Assembly (NCBI GenBank): GCA_036873755.1
Contig: JAVTVY010019589.1
Span: forward strand, 1 to 64,000
Source of the DNA: Hanleya hanleyi
Taxonomy: Eukaryota; Mollusca; Polyplacophora; Lepidopleurida; Hanleyidae
DNA length: 64,000 bases
Direction: 5' to 3'
In this document: piece by piece, positions 31,990 to 58,338 of the stretch
Numbering within the stretch: position 1 is the stretch's first letter
How the letters are laid out: each line of letters starts with the position of its first letter
The notes under the pieces: model-generated
Database searches by the model: none
The model's input: the letters and a program-made list of their open reading frames with translations, nothing else
Told to the model about the DNA's origin: nothing
Translations under genes and position numbers: made by a program

Positions 31990-33040
31990 AAGAGAGAGAA
32001 ACACATGAAGATTTTTTTACATTGGTTGATTTTCATAATGTATTGAGAAATAGATAAACATATACAATAACATATCGCGAATACCATCCTTTGTATCAGC
32101 ATCAGTATTTCCTGTGATAGTAACATGACAAAGTAGACAATAAAACCCTATTAACAGCTTCCGAACTCCACGGTGAAACAATTTTAAAATATTCAAGATG
32201 AAGGGATAAGTTGAAGATCTATTCTTCATCGCTTAACGGCATGACGTTGAGTTGGAGAATGGCATATTTTTTTTTTAAATTTGCTGGACGCAATGGCTTC
32301 AAAGTCCACCAAAAGAGCTTTGGGTTCCGCAGCGAAATAGACTCTTGTCTGTTAAACTATCGGTTTTGGTTTTCGAACCTAAAATAGTAGCACACGTCAC
32401 TCTGCCACCACCATTATATTTAGTACATATAGTCTGAGAAGATACATATTTTGTTCTCAGTAGATCAAATTCTTCACTGATATGCTTTTAAAAGTTCTGC
32501 TTTCGATTTTGCTACCTGTCACGATTTTGGATATAGTATATCTGTGTTGAATTGCAGTCTGTTGTGGAAGTTAAGAGATTGGTGTGTTTTGGTGGGTGCC
32601 TGCGCGTGCTTGGTGTGTGTGTTTACGAAAGGTGTTATGAATACACATCTTCATACTGGGGGCACACCTCCAACCGAGAACGTCCCCGGTTTGAGAAAGA
32701 CTGGGAATCTGTTTCGCTGCCCGTTTTATGATCTTGTATACAACACTATAGTGAAGAAAAAATAAATGAGGTACATGTCCCCATTTTGACTGGAGAAATC
32801 ACAAAGGGGTGTGTTTGAAATTGAAAACAGGTGTTTGCCTGGGTGTCCCGACTTTGTAGGAATGTTTTGATGTGTCCCCACTAACAGTGTGGAATACAGG
32901 TTTGGTTATTTCAAGTGCTGTGCAAATGTGAAGTGGTCGGAATGTGTCATGGAAATCCTGAGGCTGCCCAGAACAAAATCCAGTAGGAGGCTATTTCTTA
33001 AATAGCCAATATATAGTCCCCACTTGAATGGTTGTCGGTG
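31990..33040. other. upstream region of LRR copy 1
   Basis: It is matched by 41,160-41,813 plus 54,895-55,260 in unit 2. It has no convincing exon. Fragments near 32,150-32,400 resemble the RNase H-side text of the LINE family (GTAGCACACGTCACTCTGCC), so old LINE sequence reaches into this promoter-side region. The DIRS insertion in unit 2 sits here, about 680 bp upstream of the LRR start codon. Confidence 0.5.
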
Positions 33041-33048
33041 AATATCCC

Positions 33049-33430: not shown

Positions 33431-33485
33431 CATACAATCATTTCTTGAAAACTCATCCAAATAAATATCCCACAACGAACAAGGT

Positions 33486-33488
<3 letters not shown>

Positions 33489-33530
<42 letters not shown>

Positions 33531-33910: not shown

Positions 33911-33949
33911 CGTTTCTGGCTGTTCAGAGGAGTATAGCCTACAGTTTTT

Positions 33950-38733: not shown

Positions 38734-38986
38734 TCAGTGTCTTCCTACCAATCGTGTAATCCTGTATCCTGTAAATCCTACAAATAAGATCCCAAACATA
38801 ATCATAAATTCCAGCGACAAAACCGTCAGCAAAACCATATGTACTGTTGCCTTGATGCTGACCGAAAATCCGAGTGAATACCATAGACTTAATCCCTCGT
38901 CCTCCATTGTTCTCTTGAAGCAGTCGAGATCTTCGAGAGACAAATCAAATAAGTTTCGTCCCACAAGTTCCAATGGTCCGTTACAA
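38734..38986 (-). CDS. LRR transmembrane protein, copy 2, last exon
   Basis: Same acceptor and phase as copy 1, with the exon's first base at 38986. It reads CNGPLELVGRNLFDLSLEDL, a TM segment (VLLTVLSLEFMIMFGILFV) and a short tail. Relative to copy 1 there are about ten substitutions in 83 residues, including a Glu placed within the TM segment (G to E), but no stop or frameshift. Confidence 0.8.
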
Positions 38987-39883
38987 CTGGAAAAAGGAAA
39001 TAAAGTAAATGTAAAATTATTGTTCTTTCTCACCTGCGTCGGGATGCAACTTTACGCAGACTGATAAATCGAAAATGGCAAATTGTCAATTAATAGTGTC
39101 CCGAGAGTCCATCATCAATATCACAAACTGTGAAATTATTATGAATTAGCTCTAAACAATCGTAAACCATCTCAGTGGCATTTTATAATAAAAAGAATAC
39201 TGAACAGCGACACATATTTGATATTTGCAACATCAGGATGTCTTGCTGGCATCACTGAAAACTCTCTCGAAAGACATTAGCCTAATTTTTTTTTTAATTT
39301 GGTGCTAACGCTGTTATACCAATTGTGTCTATAGATTATGGACGCGGAAATTCTGTAGAGGACTTCGGCTGAATATTGAATGACTGAGACGCCTGTATTT
39401 ATATACGATGAAAACTACGCAAAATATGTCACATTTCTCTTTAAATTGGTTTTCAGTGATATATCGGAGATTCTTTTTCCCACAGCAACGAAAGTTTTCA
39501 CATCATCCTGATACGACTGCTACATTTTGTTTTCAAAATTTCAAAAAATCTATCCAGTACTTATAGCCGATAACTGGGAACCGGAAGTAGGCGTAGGCAA
39601 TTTGCATGTTAATTTTACATCATAATGATATGGAATAACATTTCAAGACCGGTGGCATTGTGCCTCAAGTATAACATGGTTGTGAATGGCGATTTTTTTT
39701 ATCCGGATGAACTTTCATGAAATTTTTGAATCAACATTCGTGTTTAAATGCTTGTTCCAATTTCACATATGTGAGAAATATCATCTACGATATAACGCCG
39801 GAAATCAATTATCCGAAAAATGTAATTAACACTTTAAAAGATCGTTTTATAATGACCAACATTATTTCTACTCATTGACTCAC

Positions 39884-41136
39884 ATGATGGGTGAAGATTT
39901 GCTCTTGAAGATTTTATTGGAGACGGCCCATTTCCATCTGCAATCACAGTACCACCTATTACCGGTCAGGGAGATATACTCCAGCTCATCCCAGGACAGA
40001 AGGTTCTTCGACAGAACGCTCAGGTCATTGTTGTCCAGCTGAACTCTGCGAATCGCTTGGTGATCACTTGAAAATGCTGACCTGGATACTAGTTTTAATT
40101 GGCTGTTGTTCTGGATGCTGATTTCCTCTAAATTATTCAAATGTGCGAATGCCTTGCTTTCAATAGAATGCAAATGAGGCATGTTTCGCAATCGTAGTCT
40201 TTTTATTGGCCAGCTTTGTCTTACCGGAACTTCCCGAAAAACCGATCCATCGATAACTTCAATTGGGTTCTGATCCATCAGAAGTTCTTCAAGTTTCCGC
40301 ATTGGGAGCAGAACCTTTGTCGATATTGTTTTCAGGCTGTTGTTTCTTAGAGACAAATATTGTAAGGAGTTAAGTCCCTGAAAGGTCTCCTCACCGATTT
40401 CTCGAAGTTGACAGCTTTCCATCATAAGCATTTTCAAGTACACCAGATGATGAAATGCGTTTCCGTTGAGCTTGATTATGGGATTTTCACTGATATCCAA
40501 TTCATTTAACGATTTTGTGGGTATGATTGTGTAAAATCCCGCTTCGGAGAGAAGATTCCCACGAAGAGAGATCTGCATTATATTTTGCAAATTCGCAAAA
40601 GCATTCTTATCAATTCTCGAAATCCTGGCAAAACTGAGATCCAAATATTTAAGAGAGGTCAGCCTAGCGAATGTGGCAAAGCCAAACCCCAGTCTTACGA
40701 TTGGGTTTCCACGCAGACTTAAAACCTCCAAGTGTTTCAAGCCAGCGAATGTTTCGTAGTTCATGTTCATACCTGACAATAAATTATCAGATAAATCTAA
40801 TTGTATTAAATTTCCCATGCCCTGAAACGCTCTTTCTTTTATGGTTGTTAGTAAATTCTGACTGAGATTAAGGTGGACGATGTTAGGCCATTCTCGCTTG
40901 GTCAAGGTGTTGATCTTATTGCAACTGAGGTCTAAGTGTCTGACAATGTCCGTGATGTCGTCCCTAATATTGGGCAATGTTGACAAGTTTTTGCTGCTGC
41001 AGTCCATGAATGTGAAATCACCACTATTTGGACATTCCACCCATCCCCCATCATGACTTTTGGAATGTTTTTTTAACCAAAAATAGCAAATTGCGAGAAA
41101 CGCGATTATCGACATCACATTATCACAGCATTGCAT
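39884..41136 (-). CDS. LRR transmembrane protein, copy 2, main exon
   Basis: Same length (1,253 bp), start and donor as copy 1, fully open. The first ~285 residues are identical to copy 1. All amino-acid differences (nine in this exon) fall in the last ~130 residues, for example MDQNPIEVI against MDENPIEVI, and SIESKAFAHLNNL against SIESNAFTHLRNL. Both copies look functional. The 13-kb DIRS insertion lies ~680 bp upstream of the ATG and could separate this copy from its promoter. Confidence 0.88.
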
Positions 41137-41813
41137 CTTGATTCGTTGTGTGAACTACAAAAGAGAGAGAAACACATGAAGATTTTTTTACATTGGTTGA
41201 TTTTCATAATGTATTGAAAAATAGATAAACATATACAATAACATATCGCGAATACCATCCTTTGTATCAGCATCAGTATTTCCTGTGATAGTAACATGAC
41301 AAAGTAGACAATAAAACCCTATTAACAGCTTCTGAACTCCACGGTGAAACAATTTTAAAATATTCAAGATGAAGGGATAAGTTGAAGATCTATTCTTCAT
41401 CGCTTAACGGCATGACGTTGAGTTGGAGAATGGCATATTTTTTTTTAAATTTGCTGGACGGAATGGCTTCAAAGTCCACCAAAAGAGCTTTGGGTTCCGC
41501 AGCGAAATAGACTCTTGTCTGTTAAACTATCGGTTTTGGTTTTCGAACCTAAAATAGCAGCACACGTCACTCTGCCACCACCATTATATTTAGTACATAT
41601 AGTCTGAGAAGATACATATTTTGTTCTCAGTAGATCAAATTCTTCACTGATATGCTTTTAAAAGTTCTGCTTTCGATTTTGCTACCTGTCACGATTTTGG
41701 ATATAGTATATCTGTGTTGAATTGCAGTCTGTTGTTGAAGTTAAGAGATTGGTGTGTTTTGGTGGGTGCCTGCGCGTGCTTGGTGTGTGTGTTCACGAAA
41801 GGTGTTATGAATA

Positions 41814-42027
41814 TTAAACATTTATAAACAATGTTTCTATTCGTAACTAAATCAAACCTGCTTCAATTATTGCCTTTAAACTCCATTTAAATGCACAATC
41901 AAACGTAGAAAACGGAAGTTAAAACTAAAAATTATCTCCCCTAGGAGATAGAGTTATCCGCCCCTAGGAGAGCTCTCACTCTTCCCAACGTGGTTACTAT
42001 ATAAGACAATGCACAGACCATTCTCTC
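41814..42027. repeat. DIRS left (3') inverted terminal repeat with TATA box
   Basis: Outer extension 41814-41853 (TTAAACATTTATAAACAATG and following), then the 174-bp core shared in inverse orientation with 54707-54880. The core contains two CCCCTAGGAG blocks and TATATAAG at 41998-42005, pointing into the element. Confidence 0.85.
41998..42005 (+). promoter_or_regulatory. TATA box in the left terminal repeat
   Basis: TATATAAG lies 23 bp before the inner edge of the shared repeat (CATTCTCTC), a reasonable distance to a start site. The same box occurs in the right repeat at 54729-54736 (minus), so each end could promote inward transcription. Promoter activity in the terminal repeats is known for DIRS elements; here it is inferred. 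Confidence 0.55.
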
Positions 42028-42104
42028 CCTCTTTCTCATTGTAATAACCGAGACCAGTAGTGAACTAGGCCGCGGTCTGAGGGGAAGGATGGGAGGGCGC
42101 ATTA

Positions 42105-42200
42105 AATTGAAGCAGGTTTGATTTAGTTACGAATAGAAACATTGTTTATAAATGTTTAATATTCGTTGCCTAAATCGTAAACCTGCTTCAATTATTGCCT
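42105..42200. repeat. DIRS internal complementary region
   Basis: 42105-42159 is the exact complement of the left terminus (41814-41868, 55 bp). It is followed, after one base, by 42161-42200, the exact complement of the right terminus (54859-54898, 40 bp). The region thus reproduces the junction that the two ends would form in a circle. This is the defining internal complementary region of DIRS1-like elements, next to the 3' repeat as expected. Confidence 0.88.
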
Positions 42201-42968
42201 CAGTACCAACAGGTGGAAGGAGGGAAACCTCGGCCAAGTAGCAGATTCAAAGGCAGGCTAAGTAACCGCTGGGAAGACACAGACATGGATATGAGACATC
42301 AATAATCAAACAATTGAAACCCTGGTCAGTGACCGTAAAAAAAGGTTAAAATGTGGATAAGATACAGTTGTACTTATCTTGAATGTCTACAGCCATGTAG
42401 CTGTGCTCGTGGTGTGGAAGTATTTTCTACCGAGAGAGGACCCCTACCCATAGAGTTGGTGGGTCTACTCGGGAAGCCATCTATACCAAGAGAAAGGGAC
42501 CTGTACCACTAGGGCTATTGGGTCTACTTGGTAAGGCTTATCTGTATGCAGATTCTTGGCTGTTCCTAAGTCCGGGTGAAGCATAACTGGTCCGTGCCTA
42601 GAGGTCGCCAAGCCACACCACTCTCAGTCCACAAACGTCTACGTCCAACTTGCTTCTTGGGAGTTGATCGTAGATGACGCAGCTGAGATCATGAGAAGGA
42701 AGTCAGATTCAACCTGTAAGACACAATCAAAACCGCAATTAAGGTAAAGATCACACTCACCATGGAGTCAGGCATCTTAGAGTGATGATTTAGTGTCCGA
42801 CATCTCTTAGAGGAACCAAGGTTGTCGATCTGAACTTATTTCTTCCTTCAATATGTGATCAATCAAATGTGGACTATATAGTATGAATGAGATGAGATGA
42901 TACAGCAATTTGCAGATTTGCTGCGATGATACAAAATGCCGCCCCCCCTTTTTTTTTTGTTTTTAAAT

Positions 42969-43140
42969 TTAGTTGACCACGTGTTGGGCATCTATACGCG
43001 GCCCAAACGTGGTCATCCTATCTGACTGGACTGACATATCTCTTAGATAGAAATTGGAGAACGTGGAGTTCGCTGTCCAGACACGACTGGACAATGTCAA
43101 GGAGGGGCAGGTTCTTCCATAAATCTCAACAAAAGAAACC
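42969..43140 (-). pseudogene. tyrosine recombinase C-terminus, duplicate copy
   Basis: The minus frame reads VWTANSTFSNFYLRDMSVQS and ends GPRIDAQHVVN with a TAA at 42969-42971. W-x-nF-x-x-FYL-x-D is the C-terminal box of DIRS-type recombinases and includes the catalytic Tyr. This copy keeps a better terminus than the one at 43,788. Confidence 0.65.
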
Positions 43141-43636
43141 TGGCCGGTAAAGCCGAGGGTAATATGGAGTAGTAATAGAAGATACTAATCTAACTTATCT
43201 TTTGAGTGTCTTCCCTTACAAGGGTAAATCATGGATATGATACAGAATATACTTATTCTTGAGTGCCTCCATCCATGTAGCTGTGCTCGTGGTGTGATAT
43301 GTAAACTCTACCAAGATGTCCGGATCCTCTACCACTCGGGTTGTTAGGTCTTCTTGGTCTTAGAGGGCGCCAAGCCACGCCATTCTCAATTCACCAACGA
43401 CTTACGTCCAACTTGTCCTGTGAGACGAGCGTAGGACACACAGCTGAGATCATCCAGAAGAAAGTCAGTTTCAAGCTGAAAGACACAAGCAAAACCGTAG
43501 TTAAGGCAAAGATTAAAACTCTCAAAGTGTCAGACCACTTAGATTGATGATTAGAGAGTCCATGGTCGTCTATCCGACTTATTCCTTCCTTCAAAGACGA
43601 TTTAAAATTGAAACATACTTGAGACAAATGTTGGCT

Positions 43637-43709
43637 TGGAGAACCCGGGAATCGATTCCGGTACCTCTCGCACGCAAAGCGAGCGTTCTACCATTTGAGC
43701 TAGCTTCCC
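43637..43709 (-). tRNA. tRNA-Ala(TGC)-like sequence, probably a pseudogene
   Basis: The 73-nt minus-strand sequence starts GGGAAGCTAGCTC and ends GTTCTCCA. The anticodon arm CTCGC-TTTGCGT-GCGAG is perfect and the loop reads TGC (Ala). There are mismatches in the acceptor stem (A4-C69), D stem (C11-A24) and T stem (A53-C61), so it is likely a degenerate or SINE-derived copy. It sits in only one of the two duplicated recombinase segments. Confidence 0.55.
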
Positions 43710-43787
43710 TGGAGCAAGATGGCTGCCTTGCTGCAATGGTGACAAATTCTGCCCCCCCCCTCTCTTCTTGAAAGAACTAACCACGTG

Positions 43788-44238
43788 CTAGGTAGCCCTT
43801 AGTGGCCTAAGCGTGGTCACACTATCTGACTGCACTGACATATCACACAGATAGAAATTTGTGAACGTGGAATTTGCAGTCCAGACACAAGAACTGGACA
43901 ATATCATGAAGGGACAAGTTCTTCCATAAAGGCCATGAGTAGCGATGGTACGAAACACATTAGAAGAAATGGAAGCCAGTAGTGGGGGCGTCAATAGTAA
44001 ATCTACCTTCTGGCAATTGATAAGACTATTTTATGGTCTTCTTCAACTACGCGGCTTTTTTAAATATCAAGCCTTGCTGACCGGCGAAGGGATATGATAA
44101 CCGTAGCCGAAAACCGCGAACGAAATCGGTACGAGTAAGATAGTGACGGAAGGCTCGAACAGGATCCAGCAGAAGATCGACCCCGAGGCCATGTACAAAG
44201 TCTGACAACGTAGGAATGGAGTACGACGTTGAGCGCAC
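43788..44238 (-). pseudogene. DIRS tyrosine recombinase (YR), decayed
   Basis: At 44047-44238 the frame reads LLLDPVRAFRHYLTRTDFVR then LSYPFAGQQGLIFKKAA, matching the middle of DIRS/Ngaro recombinases (PVRAL..YL.RT...R..RLF). After stops it resumes at 43788-43994 with SSNVFRTIATHGLYGRT and CVWTANSTFTNFYLCDMSV. R of the HxxR box and the FYL Tyr are visible; the His appears replaced by Asn. YRs catalyse integration of the circular DNA. Stops and frame changes make this copy inactive. Confidence 0.7.
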
Positions 44239-44239
44239 G

Positions 44240-45058
44240 GACCTGAACGAACAGACTCATTTTTGGCAATAAATTCAGGAATGGGCCGAAAAAAATGCAA
44301 GACCAATCCGCTGTCCAGGTCATAGAAGATCTTTAAAGAGCATAAAGATGAGACACTCTGGGCGTCAAAGCAAACGCCGCCACAAAGGCCGTCTCATAAG
44401 ACACAACTTTATAGACGCGGACTCTAAGGGTTCACAAGATGGTAAATCAGGGTACACAGAACCACACCGATATCCTATTTCGGTAACAGTTGGCGAGTAC
44501 AACGCGACTGTAATGCGAAGGCGCGAATAAGCGCAGAGATATAATCGTTAAGGCTAAAGTCGGTACCAAAGGTAAGACGTAACACGCTAGCCAGAGCAGA
44601 TCAATAGCCCTCCATGGTGCTAATATGAAACTCCCTATCCTGGTGAAGGCGAAGGAGGAAGTCAATTGCGAGGGAAATAGAATCGGGGACGGTATCACGT
44701 CCTCGGCACCAGGACCAATATAGGAACGTAGCAAGTAAGGTCCTACATATAATAAACAACCTTAAGGTTGATGACAGAACCATAAAGTCAAAGTCTAACC
44801 ATTGGTGTAACGGTCTATACAGGAATAAAGTACTTGATGGAGAAAGCCGGAAAAACTGTCCAAGTACACCACGAAAAACATTGTGTTGTTTAAGCACAAT
44901 CCTAAGGTAAATGGATCTCAACACAATGTTTGTGTGTTAAAGTCAACATGGTTCTTTGTTAAAACAACACTGTGCTGAATTCAATTAAAGGTGACTAGTC
45001 CGTCATTCACATTCCCGCCGTCGTCCTCAGAGAATATCCACGTCCATAATCCAAAGAC
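44240..45058 (-). other. DIRS interior between RT and recombinase (RNase H/linker expected), unrecognised
   Basis: Overlapping minus frames (44447-44924) have no clear motif. By position in DIRS elements, RNase H and methylase-like domains would lie here. A small inverted repeat (AACATTGTGTTG ... CAACACAATGTT) is at ~44,878-44,930. Confidence 0.35.
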
Positions 45059-45503
45059 CTATTCCATATAACAGTATTTGACCAAATACTGCTGATTGTA
45101 ATACAATTTTGATATTCTGAACTCCAGACTGGAAAACAACAAGGTCTGGACAGGACTCTCTTCGTAGACTAACGACGAACCTAAGTAAATCACAATGTGA
45201 AAAACCCGAGAAGAATTGATACAAGTGGAAAGATGACGCCAAACGAACGGACTTCCCCTCCCGCCGATGACCGACGATGAAGAATCAAAGGGGGTGCCGA
45301 TGAATGGATATAAAATATGCGTCTCGCAAATGAAGAAATGACGTGACAAACGGCGTTATGGCGTACCGGAAACGTCTAACCGATGTAATAGAACGACGCA
45401 CAGGTGTATGAGAGACACATGACGGCGTAATGAACATGCCGTCAAAGGTGTAATAGGAAAGCGTAATGTGAAAAATGCGAGAAACGTTGTAGATGATAAA
45501 CAA
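45059..45503 (-). pseudogene. DIRS reverse transcriptase remnant
   Basis: Two minus-strand frames fit a DIRS-type RT. 45285-45503 ends SFLHLRDAYFISIHRHPL, matching the KDAYFxIPIHP box that holds the first catalytic Asp. 45059-45349 reads SPFVWRHLSTCINSSRVFHI then VIYLGSSLVYEE, where the catalytic YLDD has become YLGS. Both are in the expected order upstream of the recombinase. The enzyme is dead. Confidence 0.55.
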
Positions 45504-47570
45504 CGTAGTGATTTCCTAATTCACAACAACTTAATGTATATACACGCTCAAACTGGAGCAGGATACAAAGTTATAAAAGTACACGACGTAACCGAAGGGC
45601 GTTGCAAACAGTAACCTCGAAGTCGAATGTAATAAATTTTCCTTCTCTTTAAACGCAGTAGAGATGAACATATTAAATGTTTGTAGCGTTAATCACCAAA
45701 TGTAAGCTCAATGAGATAAATGGGATTATGGATCTTTGTGTCAGTGAACATGAAATAATGTGTCAATGAATATGGTTACATTATGACCTCTCCGATGTAA
45801 TTTGTCTCCTGTACATGAGATTCAGTACTGGAGTTTTATATGGAGAGAATATTAAACATTTACAACAATGTTACTATCAATAACCAAAAAGTCACACAAT
45901 CGACATCCAGAACAAAGATTTTTCCAGGAAACCAAAACAAATCCTTAAAGGATTTTTAAATTCCCGAAGAGAGGAAAAACATTTAAGGTCTCTCGCCGGC
46001 AGGAAAATGAGGTTATTCAAAAATTTTGAATTTGAAATGACCTAACACGAACAAATTTGTCGAGAAGCGGAAGAACAGTAAGAACATTACTAAAGAGCAG
46101 TTTGATGCTCTAGTAGACTGTACTGGTAATACAAACTTGGTAGAAAGAAACCATAGAAGACTTCACGACTTACGTGTCATTAGGCTTAAACCTTGGCCGG
46201 ACCAATAGATTCCCACTCACACTAGTAAAATTTTTAATTTTCTCATAGGGAAGAAATTAAAGTTAGTGCATAAGTCCATCTGAATTATAAGCGTAACACA
46301 GTATACAGATGGAACAGCTTGGTGAGAAACAAAACAAATCACATGTATAAAACAAAATTGTGTATCAAGGTATAGCACAGAATCACAATAAACAGTGGGT
46401 AATAGAATTACTTACTCACGATAACCAACACGTGATCCCTTTGTTGATCGACACACCCTTAATCACATAAAGAGATCAGCAAAGACGCTCATTAAAATGC
46501 AATAAATAGTCGTAGCATTGAAGCCCCGTAACATCCATTTATGCTATTATTATAACATCGTTTACATAGGGTTGAGATGTGGTTACGTACACAAAAACAA
46601 CAAACACGTAAACATGAGAGGCAGAATAAAACCTCCGTAAGATCTCTCTTGAAGACAGGATATCAAAATCACATAATAATACTTGATATAACAAGCGATT
46701 ACCTTCTTGGTATGCCACAGAATTGAATGGATGCAGGTGAGAACAATCAAAGTCCGAACAAAACATACAACAACAACATGAAACCTTGACGGACTGCTTA
46801 TAAAGACTCGGATTTCCCCGGCGGAGAAAAACGAACCTCCCGCGTCAAACGAGGGTAGTTCTCACAATCCTGGTAATTTATACAACAATTCAGTGGATAA
46901 AATCATGAAACAACGAAACAAAAACTTGTTCGTTTAAAGTACATCACAATAGGCTCCATACTGACCGAACAAAACGGAATGTTGGAGACTAATAAAAGCC
47001 TACCTCAAACACACCGGGTCGTAACTCAAAGTTTGTGTGAAGACGTAATATTGACTACACACTGGCCTAATGCAGGACTGTGTTATTTGTTAAACATGAG
47101 ATTTCATAAAGACTTTTAGAAGAACATCGTCAGACGATCATTTCAAGAGAATTTAAAATCTCCGCCCCAAGTATTTAGCGACGTACGTCCAAAGACACTA
47201 AACACGTGGCCGACACAAACGAATCCAACATTCGCCCCACAAATAGATCGGGCACGGAATTAAATAAACTATGTCCACGTTGTTTATTAGCTTCCTTTTT
47301 GGAAGAGATATGTGGTACCGATAGACAGGCGAAATAACCTGCGGTAATGAATTCTTTTGTCTGAAGGAGACAATGGAATGGCCAGGCACCGACCTGGTCT
47401 TTGTTGAGCGTAACAAAGGAACGGGGTTTGGATCAACCTAGACAATGAAACACCGGACCGGGTCAAACTGTCTAGCAACCTAGAATTATCTTCGTGTATG
47501 ATAGTATGGAATACATACCGACGTGGAGAAACTGGGTCTTGACCAGCTCGGTCAAGATCCTAACAACACT
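45504..47570 (-). other. DIRS interior, heavily decayed
   Basis: There is no clear domain. At 45,852 the text TTAAACATTTACAACAATG closely resembles the element's left terminus, and 45,671 has a partial inverse, so remnants of a second related element may be nested here. Confidence 0.35.
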
Positions 47571-47960
47571 TCACACATTGACCAAAGAAATTTCTAAGAC
47601 CCGTCTGTCGATCTCCGAAATAGACGGGTCCTCACAAGCATATAAAAGCAAAGCACGACGGCCCTGGGCATAAATCTTCCAAGCCGTCGGAACCCATAAT
47701 ACATATTCCGCGCACGTGGACGCACAATAACACAAATCTTTACATGAAAAGCAAGCCGTGTGAGCGTCCAAAGGTAACAAATTTTTCCCGCACGTACGAT
47801 ACGGAATAAAAGACGTAACTTCCGACATAATAATACAGTAAGAAAGTTCCGAATAAACAACAAACTCAACACTTGATAAAGGATATACCAGCGAGACAAC
47901 AACAACCAATGTTGTAAAATTGACTCTGAATACTTCCCTAGATGTGCACTGCTCGAGCAA
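47571..47960 (-). pseudogene. DIRS gag-like ORF with Cys-rich motif
   Basis: The 129-codon frame contains RTCGKNLLPLDAHTACFSCK then CASTCAEYVLWVPTAWKIY. The pattern C..C/LP..D.H..C..C....C...TC..C..W is one I associate with first ORFs of YR retroelements in marine invertebrates. One expected Cys is Tyr here (CAEY). Upstream position relative to RT and YR agrees. Confidence 0.4.
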
Positions 47961-48915
47961 ACAGGAGAAAGAGGAAGAGAATTTTGATTGAAATTGTAGT
48001 TTAAGGGCCGCTTCCCATTCGGATTTCGCGGCCCATCAACTCAATGTTTTATTCGATTCTCGCGGTACATTACGTTGTTTATTGAATATCATTTCCAGCG
48101 CTAAATATATAAATAAATAAATAAATAAATAGATAAATAATAAATAACAATGAGAGATTAGTAGGAGATATAAATAGAAGTAAATAAGAATCGCTATATG
48201 TACAAGTTCGTAAGTCTCTTTTTGGTTTTTGGTTAAGTTATACTGGTAATTGTGAGTTGACTGTAATCGCGTGTATGATTCCTTTGTCTTGGTACCCCAT
48301 AGTACGCACAAAGCCGTCCAGAAAAAACTGGGAGAACCAGGGCGTCTTCAGGGTTCTTAGAGCCGACTTCCCGACTGACGCCCTCGGGAACAGGGGGTCC
48401 TTCCAGAAATCTGTGCCTGTAACAATTGCTTGGAGTGTGTATTGGGGTACAGAACGGCAGGTCTACGTTCTATATTGCGTGAAAGTCAAAGGATCATATT
48501 CTGTGTTGAGGCGTCAGTTGGGTAACATCAAAGGGGTATCGTATCCGGAGTGGTCTAGGGTCGAGTATTATGGGTGTTCTTGCTATGCGGCGTTGTTAGT
48601 ATTCTTGAAATCGTCATCCGTCTTCTGTTTTAGGTCTTGTCCAACTCGTCTATGGTCTTCGGTGTGCCTGTATCATATGAAATAGAAGGCTTGTAGTCAT
48701 TCTTGTTTTCTATTGTTTTTCGATGCAATAATTTGATATATCTTCCTCACAACAACAGGCACCCCCGACCGTCGGTCACATAATATGAATAGCAATATAT
48801 AATTAAGTGAGTAAATAGATGGACAAATGGATAAATAACTAAACATTTCGATGGATTCAGTACTTGGTGAATACACAAATAAACAGCTCTGTATTATTTC
48901 TTAATGCATTATCGT
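47961..48915. other. DIRS 5' region, no recognised gene
   Basis: It has an AATA-type microsatellite at 48,107-48,150 and a 142-codon plus-strand frame at 48257-48685 without recognisable domains. Confidence 0.35.
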
Positions 48916-48920
48916 TTGAT

Positions 48921-49260
48921 GGCCATAAAGAATTTGTAGGACAATGAGATAGACGGCCCTCAGTATCAAGGTAACTCCGCCATCACCATTTCCTATATTT
49001 TATGCCGAATACTGCTCGCTATTTGCGATTTGGCCGTGCTATTGTTGTCGTGAATTCAATTAGATTTGGCCATCGTTTGTTTTGTAGGACAGTGGAACAG
49101 ACGGCCCTCAGTATCAAGGTAACTCCGTTGTTGCCATGCCTATTTTATTTCTAAATGAGTCTGTGACATTTTGGCCGGATGTTATGTATGGATAGTTATT
49201 ATGGCCATAATGTTTTGTATGGCTATGGTGCACACGGCCCCCAGTATCAAGGTAACTCCG
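48921..49260 (+). repeat. three imperfect tandem repeats with AGTATCAAGGTAACTCCG
   Basis: Units of 147 and 135 bp each run from GGCCAT(A/C) to ACGGCCCTCAGTATCAAGGT, AACTCCG. The conserved motif is at 48952-48979, 49100-49127 and ~49233-49260. Between motifs the sequence is diverged, so the 28-bp block is the conserved part, perhaps a protein-binding site of the element's 5' region. Confidence 0.8.
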
Positions 49261-49352
49261 ATGCAACCATACCATTTGTTTAAGTCAGAAGAATGATTTG
49301 GCCTCTATCAAATCGTGTGATAGTACTTGGTGTACCAGTGGTTGATTATGTG

Positions 49353-49375
49353 GAAAAAAAAAAAAAAAAAAAAAA
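49353..49375 (+). repeat. A-run of ~23 at the LINE 3' boundary
   Basis: The run lies just beyond the stop of LINE ORF2 (49405) and marks the likely 3' edge of the insertion. On the LINE's sense (minus) strand it reads as T, not A. Confidence 0.8.
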
Positions 49376-49404
49376 ATGTTGACTGCGCATGCACGGCGGT
49401 AGTA

Positions 49405-52400
49405 TTATATACTGGAATAATAACCAGCAGCTTTGATAAAATTTATTAAGGACTTGAATACCTGATTTCTAATGGGGGGCTTAGGGTTTAATATCGCTGG
49501 TAATGTTAAGGGAGTGTTGGATTTTTTTAATTCGTTTCTAAGTGCCTCACGTTGTCGGTTTTGGATTGGGCATTCAAGCAGGACATGTTCTATTGTTTCT
49601 TCTACATTGTTGCATGCGGTACAAAGTGGTGAGGTGTTTTTCAGAAGCATGGACAGATGTGATTTAAGTCCGGTTTTGCCTAGTCTTAACCTGGTGATAA
49701 TGCGGTCGTCGCGTTTGCTGTCTAGCTGGAATCCACAACTCCGTCTTTTCCCCTTATCTAGAATACTATGTAGCCATCTACCTCGGTTTTCTTCATTCCA
49801 TTCTTTTCCCCATTTACTATCTATTCTAGTTCTAATGATGGAATTCAGTTCTTTGGTTCCTAGTCCTATATGCACGTCAGGTGCAGTTTTGGTGAGGCTA
49901 TTTTTGGCTGTCCTATCGGCGGCTTCATTTCCCCTAACGTCCACGTGGGCGGGAATCCAAGCTAAAATGGCGTCAATGTCATTGTCTCGTATTTGTGTAC
50001 ATAAAATTTCTATTTCGTGTATGAGGTCAGGTCTGCTGTCGGATTTGGAGTTCTTTATAGATACCAGTCCGCTTAAGGAATCGCTAAGAATAACGGTGGA
50101 AACAGGTCGGTTCTGAAGAACCCATTCGAGAGCCTTGATTATGGCGACTAATTCAGTGGTGTATACAGACATATTGTCTGGTAGTTTGAAACCTTCGTGA
50201 ATGTCAAGTTCTGGTATAACGAATGCAGAACCTGTATTGTGACTAGTGTTTTTGGAGCCGTCTGTATATATTTTCAAGCGATTTTTCCAATGTGTGTCAA
50301 TATATTCGAGGGCAGTGACCCTAATATGCTCTGGGTTGTCCTGTTTGGTGATGTAGCTATGTATATTCGTGTCCACGTGTGGTGTGATTAGTTGCCATGG
50401 TGGTCTATTGACCTTGTCAGTGTCAGAGATACAAGAGATTGGGATGTCGTGTTCTTGGTATAATAGCTCTATCGTGTAACCGAATGGCGCGGAGTCTTTT
50501 TCCCATTTCCTTTTTAGGAATTCGTATTCTGTTTTTGGGCCAAAAATGTTGTGGCATGGGTGGTTTTCGCCCTTGGCTATTGTTTTCCCTGCATATTTCA
50601 TTGACAGCTCTTCTCGTCTTAAATGTAAGGGTTTTTCATTAGTTTCTATTTGTAGACTACATAATGGAGTTCCTTTGAACGCCCCGGTGGCTATTTTTAA
50701 TGCCGAATACTGGATGCTGTCTATTCTTTTCAGATGGGTCTTGCATGCTGATTGGTAAGCGATTGAACCATAGTCTATTTTGGATCTGATGAGTGTTTGA
50801 TATAATTTGATTAAGCTATGTTTATTGGCCCCCCAGTTGGTACCCGATACACACCTCATAAGGTTCAGGTCCTTGTTACACCGAATAATTAATTGGTCGA
50901 TGTGGTCTTTCCAAGTGAGTTTTCGGTCGAAGATCATACCTAGGTATTTGACACTATTCTTAAACTCGATTTTCTGGCCTCCTAGTGATAGCGTGATGTC
51001 TGTGTTTTGTTTATTTGAGAATAGCACACCGGTAGTTTTGACAGCTGAAAATTTGAATCCCCATTTATCGGCCCAGTCGCTGACTGTATTTAGTACTTTT
51101 TGCATTATACTTGTTAATTTTTTTATCGAGCCAGCAGATTTCCACATGGCAGCATCATCAGCAAAAAGTGATTGTTCAATTTCAGGATGTTTTGTGTCAA
51201 TTTCGTTGGCCAGGCCATTAATCAGGATGTTAAAAAGGGTGGGGCTTATGACGCTGCCCTGTGGGGTGCCGTTATCTAGCTGGTGGTCCATGGACATGGT
51301 GTTACCAATACGAACTTTGAAGCTTCGGTCATGAAGAAAATTTTTATCCAGTGTTGTATCCTGCCCTTAATTCCTAGGTTGTTTAATTGGGTGATAATCC
51401 CGTCCTGCCATACAAGGTCAAACGCCTTTTCTATATCCAAGAAAATGCCTAATGTATATTGGTGTTTGGCATTACCCTTTTTGATTGAGTGTTGGAGTCT
51501 GGCTATGTGGTCTAAAGTACTTCTTTTTTTCCGAAAACCGCTTTGTGTTTTGTTTAACAAGTTGTTGCTTTCCAGGTGATATTCAAGTCTGTTTTTGACC
51601 ATGGTTTCCATAATTTTGCATAAATTTGACGTGAGTGAGATCGGCCTATATGACTTACTATCTGATGGGTCTTTACCAGGTTTTGGTATTGGGATAACAA
51701 TAGATGATTTCCATTTGTTCGGGAGTTGTTTGGTCTTCCAGCTCACATTAATTAGTTTTAGGATTAGTTTCTGGGTGGTGTTTGGTAGGTGCTTTAGGAT
51801 TGTATACCCTAGTTTGTCTTCGCCGGGTGAACTTTCTTTTTTAGAGTGTAAAGCTTTTCTGTATTCATTGATATTAAAGTCTCCGTTAAGGTAGTTTTCT
51901 ATATAGTCATTTGTGTCATTTTCCAGGATCGTTTCTTGTTTGATTTTTCTGAATTCTGGTTTCAGGTTGCTATCGCTACTGTTTGATGCGAATGATTCAG
52001 CAAGATATTCTGCCTTTTCGAGATTAGTTCTCTTTGTTTTGTTTAGTACGGGTATTGTGTTAGTTGCTTTCCCTTGAATGCTTTTTATTATATTCTATAC
52101 TTTCTTTGAGTTAGTTTTCGTATCTATAGTGTTGCAGAAATCTTCCCAGCATCTTGATTTGGCTTCTTTGACGCTTTTTTCTGCTATTCTTTTCAGTTCC
52201 TTATATATTTCATGATCACTCTGGAGGCGGCTTTTTTTGAATTTTCTGAGTGCTTTTTTCTTTGCTGCGATGTTCTTTCCACACTCTTGGTCCCACCAAG
52301 GCACTGGATTTTTGTTGGGTCGCTTATTCGTAACTGGAATATGTTTTTGTGCTATGTTTAGAAGTTTGCTGGTTATATTTTCATTGAAAGTCTCTATATC

Positions 52401-53219
52401 ATTACTAACTATATCGTCATGAATTAGACTTTGGCAATCGTTTTGGAAGCTTTTCCAGTCTGCCTTGGAGTATTGGAAGCGTGGGAGAGGGTCTGTCTGT
52501 TCAAAATCTGGTTTCATGCTAAATTTAGTCAGGATTGGAAAGTGGTCGCTGTCTAGCGTATCTGGTAGGACTGCCCATTCTGATTTAACTGCTAGTTCGG
52601 GAGAGACTATTGTTAGGTCAATTGCAGTGAGTTTACCGGTTCGCATATCTATTCTAGTCCCTTCTCCCGAGTTCAGGAATACGAGGTTATTATCATCTAA
52701 CCATTTTTCTACTGATTTACCCCTATCATCTGACGTGGTGCAGGTTTCGTCCCAGATTGGATTATGGCTATTATAATCGCCGCAGATTATAATTGGCGAG
52801 TCATATTTTTGGGTGATTTTGTTAAGTTCTTTTTGTGATATTGTTTTTAGAGTGCCAGGGGAGTACAGGTTCACTATATTTATAGGTTTATTATTTTGGA
52901 ACACCCGTATAGCTTGCCATTCGAGGTCTTCATTTTCTGGGCTCTTGTCTAATTCTAGCTGTATGAGTTCTTCCTTAACGAGTGTGAGGTTGCCTCCCTT
53001 TGGGCCGTTTAGTCTGTCTTGTCTATATGGCGTATATCCTTTTATTGCAAATTTATTTTTTCCTGGCTTAAGAAATGTTTCTTGTATACATATGATGTCA
53101 GGGCTTATTTCATTTACTAAGATTTTGAGATTGTCTCCGTGTTTTGCAATGCTATTTGCATTCCATTGTAGTATGGTGAGTTTATTGAAAATTGGGTTGT
53201 GTATTACGCGGTGGGTCTA
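49405..53219 (-). pseudogene. LINE ORF2: endonuclease, reverse transcriptase, RNase H (one stop, one frameshift)
   Basis: About 1,270 codons on the minus strand. The endonuclease begins LTILQWNANSIAKHGDNLK; catalytic boxes are CIQETF, CGDYNSHNPIWDE and SDHFPI. The RT has SYRPISLTSNLCKIMETMV, LGIFLDIEKAFDLVW and TPQGSVISPTLFNILINGL with the catalytic FADD. RNase H follows (IYTDGSK, YTTELVAI, LSDS, WIPAHVDVRGNEAAD) and then CTACNNVEETIEHVLLEC. Two lesions are visible: an in-frame TAG at 52095-52097, where a Trp codon would fit, and a single-base shift in an A-run near 51,338. RNase H after RT and an APE endonuclease place it in the I/Jockey group (Nimb- or I-like). No ATG opens the frame after the ORF1 stop, so reinitiation or readthrough would be needed. 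Confidence 0.88.
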
Positions 53220-53239
53220 ATCTATTGTCCTAGGTGTTC

Positions 53240-54442
53240 TCATATAGAGGTGTTGAGGGCGTTATTGTTTTTCTTGGGAGTTGATGTTTTTCTTTTGTAT
53301 TTCGGATTGAATCCCCATGCTATTATTTCTTTGGGGTTAAATTCCCAATTCAAGAAGTCTTGAGCAATGCGGGCTATTATGTCAGCTTTATTCGTTTTGG
53401 AGTTGGCATTGTGGACTGAGTTAATAACAATGTTAATAAAGCCTAGGAATTCGATTTTACTCATACTAATTGTTTCGGGTTTGTCCGCGGTTTCTGACTC
53501 CATTGATTGTTCTGTCACTGGTGCCTTATTGTTATTTGCTACTTCGCTCACAGGTTTTCGCAGGTCTATTGTTTCTCTGAGTTTTTGATTCACTTTAGTT
53601 TCTCTGATTTTTCTATTCATTCTGGTTTCTTTTACAGCTTCTGCGTAAGAAATTCCTTTGTCTGCCTTAGTGAATTCAACTCTTTTTGCCTCTTTGAAAG
53701 CTATACAACCCTTGTAGGCCGCTGAATGGTTGCCTTTGCAGTTTACACATGTTACTTTTCTTTCTGTACATTCTTCGTATTTATGATTTCCAGAGCATTT
53801 CGCACATACAACTTGGGATTTACAAAATCTAGCTATATGACCACCATATTTCTGACAGTTATGGCATCGTTTTGGTGTGTCAAAAAAAGGTTTAACTATA
53901 ATGTTACGAAGCCATAGCCGGACAGTTTCCGGTAATTTTGATCCTTTGAATACTAGCATAATGCTTGTCGTTTCCTGTTTGTTCTTTTGCATTCTTTTGG
54001 CATATACGACGTTTTGTTTTGAGAGAGTGGGGAGAATGTCTTCTAGTTTGATACTGTGGTCAATTCCATAAATTACTCCTTTGCATTGCTCTCTACGCTG
54101 TATGAATTGTTTTACCGAGACAGGTTTATCTGCTAGCAGGTCTAAATGTAGTAATTTCTCGTACTGAGTTTGTGATTTGCAGTGGACTTTCAGATCACCA
54201 CCCGGTAGTTCAAAGATTTGATGTACGTCACCAGCACATTTTTTTAGATCGTTTGCTACCTTGGCCTTTGGGAATTTACATGCTCTCATTTGGGTTAAAC
54301 TATGGATGATGGCGATAAAATTTGCTAGACTACTAGGCCTTTCGGGTAGGGATCGTTGTTTTTTGGTGGGTGGGGATTTTTCAGTGTTGATTTCTGAGAG
54401 CTTCCTTTTAGGTGTTTTTACGGTGGATTGAGAGGCTTCCAT
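53240..54442 (-). CDS. LINE ORF1, gag-like protein with three zinc knuckles
   Basis: Intact 400-codon frame, ATG at 54442, stop TGA at 53240-53242. A basic N-terminus (KTPKRKLSEI, PPTKKQRS) precedes an RRM-like/PRE_C2HC-type gag domain (residues ~45-190). Then come knuckles CHNCQKYGGHIARFC, CAKCSGNHKYEEC and CVNCKGNHSAAYKGC (residues ~193-250), followed by a Lys/Glu-rich tail. It binds LINE RNA to form the RNP. The ORF2 frame is closed by a TAG at ~53,217 and opens immediately after, 20 bp downstream of the ORF1 stop. Confidence 0.9.
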   Translation of the reverse strand: MEASQSTVKTPKRKLSEINTEKSPPTKKQRSLPERPSSLANFIAIIHSLTQMRACKFPKAKVANDLKKCAGDVHQIFELPGGDLKVHCKSQTQYEKLLHLDLLADKPVSVKQFIQRREQCKGVIYGIDHSIKLEDILPTLSKQNVVYAKRMQKNKQETTSIMLVFKGSKLPETVRLWLRNIIVKPFFDTPKRCHNCQKYGGHIARFCKSQVVCAKCSGNHKYEECTERKVTCVNCKGNHSAAYKGCIAFKEAKRVEFTKADKGISYAEAVKETRMNRKIRETKVNQKLRETIDLRKPVSEVANNNKAPVTEQSMESETADKPETISMSKIEFLGFINIVINSVHNANSKTNKADIIARIAQDFLNWEFNPKEIIAWGFNPKYKRKTSTPKKNNNALNTSI

Positions 54443-54706
54443 TGTTTGATTTGTTTTTGTTTAGATCAAGACTACTTGTTATTTGCTAAGGAGTGACTTT
54501 AGTGATAGGAAAAATTAGTATAGGTGCAAGAATTCAATTCAAAACTTAGCTCTGGCTGGCTGGTTTCTCCCGCTGTTTGTTGTTGTAGTATAGGTAATCC
54601 TGTAAAGCCCGGGGAACAAAGACCGCAGAGGAACACAAAGGCTGGGAAAGCTGGGCTGGTTTGGTAGAACACAAAAACACGTCCGTTCACTTTGAGCGCT
54701 GAGTAT
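54443..54706 (-). other. LINE 5'UTR and DIRS junction
   Basis: The LINE 5' end lies somewhere here; no target duplication could be defined. The nearest promoter is the TATATAAG box of the DIRS terminal repeat at 54729-54736, oriented toward LINE ORF1 at a distance of ~290 bp from its ATG. Confidence 0.5.
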
Positions 54707-54899
54707 GAGAGAATGGGCTGTGCATTGTCTTATATAGTAACCACGTTGGGAAGAGTGAGAGCTCTCCTAGGGGCGGATAACTCTATCTCCTAGGGGAGAT
54801 AATTTTTAGTTTTAACTTCCGTTTTCTACGTTTGATTGTGCATTTAAATGGAGTTTAAAGGCAATAATTGAAGCAGGTTTACGATTTAGGCAACGAATA
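54707..54899. repeat. DIRS right (5') inverted terminal repeat
   Basis: 174-bp core (54707-54880) inverse to 41854-42027, then the outer extension ending GGCAACGAATA. A TATA box (54729-54736, minus) points into the element. GAATA at 54895-54899 is the crossover sequence shared with the target. Confidence 0.85.
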
Positions 54900-55275
54900 C
54901 ACATCTTCATACTGGGGACACACCTCCAACCGAGAACGTCCCCGGTTTGACAAAGTCTGGGAATCTGTTTTGCTGCCCGTTTTATGATCTTGTATACAAC
55001 ACTATAGTGAAGAAAAAATAAATGAGGTACATGTCCCCATTTTGACTGGAGAAATCACAAAGGGGTGTGTTTGAAATTGAAAACAGGTGTTTGCCTGGGT
55101 GTCCCGACTTTGTAGGAATGTTTTGATGTGTCCCCACTAACAGTGTGGAATACAGGTTTGGTTATTTCAAGTGCTGTGCAAATGTGAAGTGGTCGGAATG
55201 TGTCATGGAAATCCTGAGGCTGCCCAGAACAAAATCCAGTAGGAGGCTATTTCTTAAATAGCCAATATATAGTCC

Positions 55276-56049
55276 CTACTTGAATGGTTGTCGGTGAATA
55301 TCCTCACTAAGCACCTCTCGTAAACGTTTGTGTGCACATGTGTGTGTGCGCGTGTGTGTGTGTGAGAGAGAATTATGGTTTAATTTATGCAACAAATCGA
55401 TTTCTCTCAAATAACCTAAAATCGAATCTTCTTTTACCAGACTTAAAAGATATCGTAAAGTAGCTGCTCGATAAAAGGAATCTCTTACAATCTTGTATAT
55501 ACAGTCGATCAAGATATGTTTCACTGGGAAATCTTCTTGGCATGGAATACCTGTTTTAGTAAATGTTCGTGAATTAATATTAGTCGCGTATGGCAGATTC
55601 TACACCGCCTGATCGTGACTTGATCGAAACGATTCTGGCTACTCCGAAAAGTGTAGCCCATGGGTTTTCAACTCGTAAAGTTTGTTTTTACAAACAATCA
55701 TTTCTTGAAAACTCATCCGAATAAATATCCCACAACGAACAAGGTGTAGAGAGAGCGAGAGAGAGAATTAAGGTTTAATGTCGCGTTCACCAATATTTCA
55801 GCTATATAGCGACGATCAAACAAAATTCTAAGTACCGTACTCAAGTCACTAACTTAGTAATCCAACGCATTGAAACAATCACACATTGAAACTTATGTAA
55901 CAAACCGATTTCTCGCAAATAACCCAAGATGCAATCCTCCCTCACCCGACTAAAAAGATCTTCCAAAGTAGTCGCTCGATAAAAAGCATCTCTTGCAATC
56001 TTAAAATCTATACATTCGATAAGAATATGTTTCACCGTCAGATCATCAT
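55276..56049 (-). pseudogene. LINE ORF2 3' end fragments (unit 2 copies)
   Basis: These match 33,049-33,809 of unit 1, including KHILIDCIYKIVRDSFYRAA (55276-55524) and KHILIECIDFKIARDAFYRA (55841-56035), with a shorter GA tract at ~55,749. Similarity to unit 1 stops abruptly at 56,049 after GATCATCAT. Confidence 0.7.
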
Positions 56050-58338
56050 TATTGCTTCGTTGATTTCCGTTCAGACTTCAATTCTCTTACGTCAAGACAT
56101 AGGAAACTTCAGTCGCTTAAAAGCTGTCGGTCGACACATCAGTCATTGTCTTCAGATATTACCATTTTCACTGAACAGTATGTACATGTATATACACTTT
56201 AAGATCCTTGAATTGCTTATATACCAAGGAAGATGAGTCGCAATCTTGTCAGTGGTTCAGCTAATTTGCATACAGTCACAGGCGACTGTCTTATTAAGTA
56301 GAAAAATAAGTTCACTACTTCTAGTAATCATTTTATCTACCCAATCTAGATAATTCACAAATTGGCGAAGAAGTAGACAAGTAACGCACTGTCATTATGA
56401 TTAACATTGAATAATACTTGGTATCAAATTATAAATCATGCATCATAAAAACAAACGCAACAATTACGTTTCAGAAGTAAGGGAACAACTCACCAACTTT
56501 CGCCGAATAAAGATGTTTAACTTATAGAAATGACAAATTGGTATGATGCTTAACTTTACCCCCAAGCAATTCGCATATATGGAAATATGTTTTTAAAGGA
56601 AGAATAACTTAACCCTATGTGGGAATGGAAACAATGACCCTCCAATCCCTGGAGTTGCACTTACTGTCTTAGCTATACCGACTCATTGATAATACTCAAA
56701 ACTGATTTTATGCGCAACTGGTTTTATAATACAAAAATGACTAATTAGTATTTAATGAGTCAGACAACCCTATGCGCGAACAATACATTATAGTTGTGCA
56801 GTTATATTGTGCATTTTCGGTTACAAGCATGAAATTTGGCACATAGCTATTTTGAATGATCCTCTTTCGAAACACAGTCTCTCTATCCTCATTCTCGGAA
56901 GCCAGGGGCTTGCTTCGCTGGTATTGATGTTCCCGTCCTCTTCGGCACTCAGAACCCCTTTAGATTAGCATTAATCTCTCCCGTAAATTCAATACTTATG
57001 TTTATCAGCAGACAATGGGCAGAAACATATTGCATTTGACATCATTCTCTCAAGTCAGAGCCCATTTCTGCTATAATTTACTGGTTCTACACTTCACAAT
57101 TTACGTTACTTTGTCAATCAGTTTTACAAATTTATTAACAGATGCTCGTTGTCAAAGCTAGGGCCTTGATTTCCTTGAGGGGTTTTTGAGTTTGATTTTG
57201 ATACTTAGATACCTTTCATATTGACTTTAACTTGGCAGTCATCTTCGCGAATGCAATAATTTGATGTACCAAAAGATAATAACGAGAATTCGACATCATT
57301 CTCTTACACACAAACCTTGTTTAGTGACCTAGCCTTGAAATTTCGCACTTAAATCACCTTCGGAATGACTTAGTGACAAACATATTCGCGAATTGAGTAT
57401 AGGGAGATATCCATAGATACTGACAAGAAATCTTTCTTATTTGCAGAATTTGATTTTTAAAAACAGAAATTAATAAAATTAGCAACCTTCGAAAAGGCTT
57501 GGCCGAACATGTCAGATGAGATGATATCTTCTAAGAATGGAACCATTTATATAGAAGGAGTTGGTATTGACTTGCTGCATGGAAAAGAGTGTCAAGGTAT
57601 TTAGTTTGCAGCTGATAACACACATAAATGCAGAAACTTAATTAATTATTCTAATCGAATATCAAGACTGTCACAGGCCTCAATTTGAATAGTGAAAAGT
57701 GTCATTATGCTCCTTGGACAGTTCGATAAAGCCTTCAACCCCATAGTTTCACAGATCAAAGTGATAGACCTGATAATAAATTCATTGAAAATTAACTTTG
57801 AAGGAAATATAAATTTTCCATTTTGCTCGGCAAAATAAGCAAGAAGGGGGACTGAAGAGCGTAGATTTTCAAATATTTGAAAGCCTTTTTGATTTGCAAA
57901 AATCAACGGCTGAACCGAATGTTTTGAAACTTGGCATACACGATACTTGTGCCAAGACATTGTCAAAGCGATCATTGTGACTTCGTCTGTCAATTCCGTA
58001 TAGACGGCACGGACCAGTCAGAATCGTTGGATGTTGAACGGGGAAAGTGAATATATATATATATGGTATCAGACCTATTAGGCAATTCCTACAATTGTGG
58101 GTTAGAAGTTGAAAATGACTTCCATTGGCATGAACACACTGGCAGATGGAGCTTTTTTCTACAATTACCACTACCTCCGCTGATATGTCGTTCACTGTAT
58201 TATTGCCACTGCCGCAGGTTTTGACTACAATGTAGTCATTTCTCACTTGTTTTGAACTCATGAAGTTCGAACAAGGTGTATTACTCTGTGGTATGCATTG
58301 AGGCTCGTTACCGTTAGTGTCTGATTGAGCAGGGTGAT
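56050..58338. other. 2.3 kb block present only in unit 2
   Basis: It replaces 140 bp of LINE 3' sequence present in unit 1. Two overlapping minus frames (57646-57993 and 57869-58261) contain no recognisable domain. There is an (AT)n at ~58,051. I see no inverted ends or target duplication, so it may be ancestral sequence or a recombination patch rather than a transposon. Confidence 0.4.

What the first reader, a model, noticed from the sequence alone, without database searches (positions are those of the whole stretch)
41809..54899. DIRS element caught with both its empty site and its circle-junction template: integration by crossover at GAATA
The internal complementary region (42105-42200) predicts the circle junction ...CAAC-GAATA-TTAAAC.... 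The empty target in unit 1 reads ...TTAT-GAATA-CACATC (~32,636). The observed junctions are TTAT-GAATA-TTAAAC and CAAC-GAATA-CACATC, exactly the products of one reciprocal recombination. Published DIRS1-type elements use a short identity with the target (a TTT-like trinucleotide); a 5-bp GAATA would be a distinct specificity. Having empty site, element and internal template in one window is rare.
Basis: partly seen in the sequence, partly recalled or inferred. Interest (0 to 1): 0.92.

Follow-up and report, generated by a model that had tools for sequence, protein, structure and literature searches.

The report
DIRS-type element's integration site decoded
A jumping DNA element in a mollusc-like genome belongs to a many-copy family with no recognisable genes of its own and slips between two host bases without duplicating any, at a loose, nearly symmetrical 13-letter motif, so the five shared letters GAATA seen here are mostly coincidence.

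Summary
The sequence observations are right: element 41809-54899 has DIRS1-type ends, an internal template (42105-42200) reading CAAC-GAATA-TTAAAC, and an empty paralogous site at 32639. GAATA specificity is wrong. The host genome (2.48 Gb) gave 40 right termini; GAATA stands at 1 of 36 independent ones (2 of 43 with later copies). The element, ATTAAAC...CAACGAAT, goes conservatively between two host bases. Pooled junctions give a target motif, A-A-A-W^A-N6-T-T (dyad AA-N8-TT), noticed in 17 sites and holding in 7 and 22 more (+9 T 42/46, +8 T 35/46). The element/host switch was at ^ in every junction read. At a second locus, ten of ten fetched relatives of the flank are contiguous across the join. 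The family is about 6.3 kb, young (12 copies, mean identity 98.6%), with no gene found, so it presumably borrows a tyrosine recombinase (inferred; that search did not complete). The 13-kb size comes from a 6,725-bp LINE at 47983-54707 with target duplication AGAGAAT.

The parts
32639..32651 (+). empty target site in the paralogous unit: GAAT^ACACATCTT (TT at +8,+9)
41809..41812 (+). host half of the target (GAAT, -4..-1) at the left junction
   Evidence: host side by comparison with other copies
41813..42027 (-). right terminus (rTer) of the element: right extension about 41813-41837, then divergent and conserved ITR; the element strand is minus
41998..42005 (+). TATATAAG (TATA-like) in the ITR, about 30 nt before its inner end; the second copy is at 54729-54736 on the minus strand
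   Evidence: reading as promoter is inferred
42105..42200 (-). internal complementary region: template of the joined ends CAAC-GAAT^A-TTAAAC
   Evidence: agrees with lTer in 21 of 24 copies
42201..47982 (-). interior shared by the family, no gene found (no RT, RNase H, methyltransferase or recombinase domain)
   Evidence: copy L017
47976..47982 (.). target duplication AGAGAAT of the nested LINE (other copy 54708-54714)
47983..54707 (-). nested LINE (gag-like ORF1, endonuclease, RT, RNase H), absent from 15 of 15 loci that span this point
53240..54442 (-). LINE ORF1 (400 aa), open; CCHC knuckles by my reading, no Pfam hit
49405..53180 (-). LINE ORF2, broken (one in-frame stop, one frame change)
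54708..54898 (-). left terminus (lTer), ending CAACGAAT
54899..54907 (+). host half of the target at the right junction: ACACATCTT, TT at +8,+9

Best explanation
This is a copy of a young, large, non-autonomous retrotransposon family with DIRS1-type ends (about 6.3 kb, no gene found) that carries a nested LINE. Shown: the element ATTAAAC...CAACGAAT is inserted conservatively between two host bases; the host site prefers AAAW^A-N6-TT; the internal region encodes the joined ends, and its variants mostly agree with the element's left end. Inferred: transcription starts near the inner edge of the left ITR (TATA-like box); the internal region guides rebuilding or joining of the ends; a DIRS-family tyrosine recombinase supplied in trans binds the two half-sites AA and TT (8-bp spacer), cuts one nucleotide into the spacer and joins there.
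For: ITR plus internal template. Copies: 40 right termini from 40 candidates scored of 1,475; 36 independent flanks plus a tandem; 40 candidates scored of 1,954; 22 contigs not, two of them repeating other flanks. Twelve full copies of 6,256-6,366 bp, pairwise 97.6-99.7%, longest open frame 183 aa, no codon periodicity in substitutions. No Pfam domain at E<=1 in six frames of copy L017; in the window interior two weak hits below their cut-offs. Target: 46 independent lTer junctions, all GAAT then host, +9 T 42, +8 T 35, +1 A 29; 43 rTer junctions, A at host -3 in 36 and at -2 in 41. Sites read after the motif was noted: 7 (+9 T 6, +8 T 5) and 22 (+9 T 21, P 3e-10; +8 T 17, P 1e-5). Empty sites: window unit 1 and 10 of 10 fetched relatives of the L017 flank, of 40 listed. 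Template and lTer agree in 21 of 24 copies in a 7-nt segment with three main forms.
Against: No tyrosine recombinase gene or autonomous partner was seen: the PF00589 genome search did not complete. Half-site recognition by a recombinase is inferred from base preferences alone. The +1 A preference was weak in the second later set (10 of 22). Three of 24 copies have a template that differs from the end (L024, L037, L043), and the agreement of the others could also be shared subfamily descent. Both genome searches score only the best 40 candidates, so older or more divergent copies are not sampled. One review passage says that Dictyostelium DIRS-1 has no apparent sequence preference (PMC5633606).
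Confidence: 0.85

Rival explanations
1. Integration needs a 5-bp identity GAATA between joined ends and host.
For: The four sequences of the window share GAATA.
Against: GAATA in 1 of 36 and 2 of 43 rTer junctions; 225 of 3,715 AAT sites in the window have G and A flanks, so a 6% coincidence explains it; the L017 target reads AAAG^A, as in 8 of 10 fetched empty relatives, the other two reading AAAA.
Confidence: 0.02
2. Standard published model (not exclusive of the best explanation): a double-stranded circle recombines through a 3-bp identity (circular junction AAT) with the host.
For: AAT at -3..-1 in 12 of 24 two-ended sites; AAT is the commonest junction in Table 3 of PMC3266345.
Against: The third base is not shared in 10 of 24 sites, yet lTer always has the element's T. 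The site has preferences where the joined ends differ (-4 A against G; +8 T against A, same in only 5 of 46). No trace of mixed resolution: the element sequence ATTAAA is never left at lTer (0 of 46).
Confidence: 0.25
3. The LINE genes are the element's own and the thing is a LINE-DIRS chimera.
For: In the window the LINE lies directly inside the left ITR, in the element's sense.
Against: 15 of 15 fetched loci that span this point run through without it; exact 7-bp duplication AGAGAAT against the five copies printed; LINE relatives elsewhere.
Confidence: 0.02
4. A terminal-inverted-repeat DNA transposon or LTR-like element with a 5-bp target duplication GAATA.
For: GAATA flanks both ends in the window.
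Against: GAATA is in the internal template; lTer ends in GAAT in 46 of 46 junctions while host bases vary; the empty sites show no duplication.
Confidence: 0.02

Closest known systems
DIRS1-like retrotransposons (Piednoel et al. 2011, PMC3266345; passages and section 10 read)
   Same: ITRs with a right extension only, internal complementary regions overlapping at AAT near the 3' end, no target duplication, ATT start; sizes of the parts (extension about 25-29, ICR 41/60) within the spread of Table 3
   Different: no gag, recombinase, RT/RNase H or methyltransferase gene found; right end NTT with variable N; a dyad target AA-N8-TT is not described in the parts I read
Non-autonomous SIRE of VIPER (PMC6681497, passage read)
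   Same: derivative of a tyrosine recombinase retrotransposon that keeps the ends without the genes
   Different: SIRE is short (185 + about 30 + 220 bp) and VIPER has split direct repeats; this family is 6.3 kb with ITR/ICR
Cre/loxP-type core sites (geometry recalled, not taken from a call)
   Same: two inverted recognition elements around an 8-bp spacer, exchange one base into the spacer
   Different: half-sites reduced to AA/TT; no homology seen across the spacer; only one switch point visible

Membership tests
DIRS1-like retrotransposon | inverted terminal repeats | tested here: met
   174 nt, 99%; also in the 14 fetched copies with both ends, 1-7 mismatches in the part compared
DIRS1-like retrotransposon | internal complementary regions matching both ends and overlapping at the circular junction | tested here: met
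   60/60 and 41/41 in the window; present in 24 of 24 copies examined, with changes in a few (L021 right half rearranged; L024, L035, L037, L043 and some others point differences)
DIRS1-like retrotransposon | no target site duplication | tested here: met
   two loci with empty sites
DIRS1-like retrotransposon | both ends share a fixed trinucleotide equal to the circular junction | tested here: inconclusive
   left end ATT in 46 of 46; right end mostly NTT with variable N, N shown to be the host's at L017 only
DIRS1-like retrotransposon | encodes tyrosine recombinase, RT/RNase H, methyltransferase | tested here: not met
   hence described as a non-autonomous element with DIRS1-type ends, not filed as a coding DIRS1
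DIRS1-like retrotransposon | autonomous partner in the same genome | not tested
   PF00589 search unanswered
LINE with endonuclease and RNase H (nested insert) | ORF1, endonuclease, RT, RNase H, target duplication | tested here: met
   (ORF1 had no Pfam hit; its CCHC reading is mine; no poly-A or other canonical tail was identified at the 3' end)

The most novel reading that the evidence does not exclude
DIRS-type integration is a one-strand exchange, for example of a single-stranded cDNA whose ends are held together by the internal template, at a minimal two-half-site core (AA-N8-TT). Element and host switch at a single fixed phosphate one base into the spacer, and the other strand is made by host synthesis. 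This predicts what is seen: no heteroduplex resolution, no homology across the spacer, and host base -1 kept on one side with the element's T on the other.
Probability: 0.35. Interest if true: 0.8.

Novelty: new variant of a known kind. Interest (0 to 1): 0.62.

Why it matters
How DIRS retrotransposons integrate has rested on a proposed circle model that reviews call not fully proven (PMC5633606, passage; PMC5941688, passage). A many-copy young family with exact junctions, empty sites and a defined core motif gives that model measurable predictions: cut position, strand order and half-site recognition. It also adds a 6.3-kb family without genes that would have to be mobilised in trans. My ten answered searches of the held open-access library (searches failed) listed no paper whose title or shown abstract describes such a target motif; most subscription papers are not held, so this is weak evidence of novelty.

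Tried and rejected
Two LINE boundaries guessed from the window alone (48103-54694 with AGCGCT; 48158-54704 with ATGAGAGA) were wrong; comparison with LINE-free copies gave 47983-54707. A LINE-DIRS chimera was considered and rejected on the same ground. An 8-nt match GTTTACGA left of the unit-1 empty site looked like a binding arm: an 8-nt run is reached, at arm lengths 20 and 25, by 1 of the 220 GAATA sites counted (a count that includes the unit-1 site itself), but the true target in unit 2 has it broken and is unremarkable (15 to 38 of 220 have at least as many left-arm matches, by arm length), and the other copies show no clear preference there. The ITR pattern was not found in prokaryote or viral contigs, nor LINE relatives in genome contigs. 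ARAGORN found no tRNA although Rfam scored one. I feared the rTer sample was biased because copies with host overlap would score just below the cut; none of the lTer-selected copies read showed that pattern, but those too are the best 40 of 1,954.

Rows dropped: L009 (head-to-tail tandem), L014, L029, L047 (same flanks as L011, L027, L043) from the rTer counts (L038 was missed by my text pattern there and added); C46223 and C15566 (same flanks as L015 and C33931) from the lTer counts; C37434's rTer (TTTAAC for TTAAAC) left out of the 43. rTer was not in the fetched stretch for C34514, C19985, C6551, C9659, C25125, C15430, C11924, C46223 and C33211; two stretches did not exist (C29430, C9744). 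Of 13 predicted lTer stretches two were read at once; five held an lTer that my text pattern missed (two of these re-fetched for more flank), two needed a shifted stretch, and four had no lTer there. So part of the first later set of 7 was already fetched, though unread, when the motif was noted. Of the 22 later sites two (C2861, C12028) belong to copies already known from their right end.
Full report
Observation. The element, template and empty site are as described. The template 42105-42200 is an exact inverted copy of 60 nt of the window-left end and 41 nt of the window-right end, joined at GAATA, so GAATA is not a target duplication. The element strand is minus. The terminus at 41813-42027 is the right one, with a right extension of about 25 nt; part sizes fall within the spread of Table 3 of Piednoel et al. 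2011 (PMC3266345, section 10 read). Both ITRs carry TATATAAG about 30 nt before their inner end, which suggests transcription from the ITR edge (inference).

What fills the 13 kb. The coding signal found is LINE-like: ORF1 53240-54442, endonuclease, RT and RNase H down to 49405, with one in-frame stop and one frame change. The best ORF2 relative is 66% identical. The period-3 measure is 1.67-3.87 in the eight 600-bp windows of 49400-54199 and 0.25-1.69 in the twelve windows of 42200-49399. Comparison with 20 fetched loci shows the family interior at 41810-47982 continuing at 54708-54899 in all 15 loci that span the point; the 6,725 bp between are an insert flanked by AGAGAAT, which occurs once in the five copies printed.

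The family. One search found the host genome (2.48 Gb, 52,793 contigs, unnamed; a leucine-rich-repeat gene in the window is nearest to the chiton Liolophura at 42%, so a mollusc is likely). The 40 scored candidates of 1,475 gave 40 right termini, 98-100% identical to the query; 40 of 1,954 matched the left terminus at 98-100%. Fourteen fetched copies have both ends: twelve of 6,256-6,366 bp, one of 8,031 bp with a nested insert bearing an RT-like frame, one of 3,185 bp. The twelve are 97.6-99.7% alike (mean 98.6%), with no open frame above 183 aa and no codon periodicity in substitutions. Copy L017 gave no Pfam domain in six frames. The ends vary least: 10 variable columns in the first 500 positions and 9 in the last 350 or so, against 21-56 per 500 in the interior, though the copies were picked by their right end. 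This looks like a family without genes that was recently active.

The target. In 36 independent rTer junctions of the 40 rTer-selected copies the base next to TTAAAC is always A (element), preceded by T 17, A 14, C 4, G 1, then A 34 and A 33, then A 25 with G 7. GAATA occurs once. In 17 lTer junctions GAAT was constant and then host; host positions +8 and +9 were T in 13 and 15. I noted this and then read 7 further sites: +8 T 5, +9 T 6. After a separate search by the left end, 22 more sites (two of them left ends of copies already known) gave +8 T 17 (binomial 1.1e-5 against 31% T) and +9 T 21 (3.2e-10). Over all 46 sites: +9 T 42, +8 T 35, +1 A 29; the +1 preference was weak in the last set (10 of 22). 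The motif is AAAW^A-N6-TT, a dyad AA-N8-TT; TT at both +8 and +9 stands in 31 of 46. Positions -4 and +8 prefer bases that the joined element ends do not have, and +2 to +7 show no clear likeness to the element, so the site seems to be read by a protein rather than chosen by homology alone.

The switch point. At lTer the element ends GAAT in 46 of 46, and the element's own next bases (ATTAAA) are never left there (0 of 46). At rTer the element begins ATTAAAC, also in the 8 copies found through their left end whose right end was in the fetched stretch, one with a point change. In 10 of the 24 two-ended sites host base -1 is not T, and lTer still has T. For copy L017, inserted in a dispersed repeat, 10 of 10 fetched empty relatives (of 40 listed) are contiguous across the join, 8 with the same G at -1. 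At these two loci insertion is exactly conservative. A two-strand exchange with staggered cuts would be expected to leave mixed junctions after repair; none was seen. This favours a single fixed switch (one-strand exchange or strictly biased repair). It is inference: cDNA form and recombinase are not observed.

Template and ends. Among 24 copies with both parts, the 7-nt segment before GAAT agrees between template and lTer in 21, including four copies with AGGAAGC and one with AGGCAGC in place of AGGCAAC; L024, L037 and L043 disagree. L038 shares a variant in rTer and template; L021 and L035 have templates that differ from their rTer. This fits the template role, but shared descent of subfamilies would give much the same. 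Copy L009 holds two elements head to tail with exactly the predicted joined sequence, as expected for insertion at a resident end.

Literature. DIRS elements inserting without target duplication, AAT junctions and self-insertion are known (PMC3266345 passages and section 10; PMC5633606 passages; PMC5941688 passages). The PMC5633606 passage reports no apparent sequence preference for Dictyostelium DIRS-1, unlike this family. The 2020 report of linear single-stranded DIRS cDNA was seen only as a reference-list entry; the paper is not held. Other papers were seen as passages only (PMC9210276; PMC6681497; PMC3783388; PMC12477816; PMC2685390; PMC4381057) or as listings.

Verdict. The finding is real, its interpretation partly right. 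The new content is the target motif, the fixed switch and the family without genes.

Noticed in passing
L009 (G000:C1486:29900-34418), positions 321-607: Two family copies head to tail, joined by exactly CAACGAATATTAAAC, as if one inserted at the end of the other.
   Followed up: partly
window 14498-15932 + and L013: Reverse-transcriptase-like frames without Pfam hits that look Penelope-like (my reading); a near-identical protein stretch sits in the longest open frame of the 8,031-bp copy L013.
   Followed up: partly
window 42300-43930: About 0.8-kb internal direct duplication (75-80% alike) inside the element; the second copy holds a tRNA-like stretch (43637-43709, Rfam RF00005, 38.4 bits; ARAGORN negative).
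   Followed up: partly
window 44983-45087: A roughly 90-105-bp segment of the element interior resembles (76-85%) a repeat that occurs eight times elsewhere in this window.
   Followed up: partly
window 28600-41700 and 54900-63600: Tandemly duplicated host unit with a 418-aa leucine-rich-repeat ORF (30709-31965, 39880-41136); stretches compared next to the element differ by 0.4-3%.
   Followed up: partly
window 25435-27000: Dense 21-bp direct and inverted repeats built on TTTTTGATATCAAAAA.
   Followed up: no
window 27910-28464 -: ORF with a THAP domain, possibly a P-element-type transposase remnant (inference).
   Followed up: no
window 44200-48200: Element interior has a high CpG observed/expected ratio (0.96-1.29 per kb; rest of the window mean 0.79, range 0.15-1.24).
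   Followed up: no
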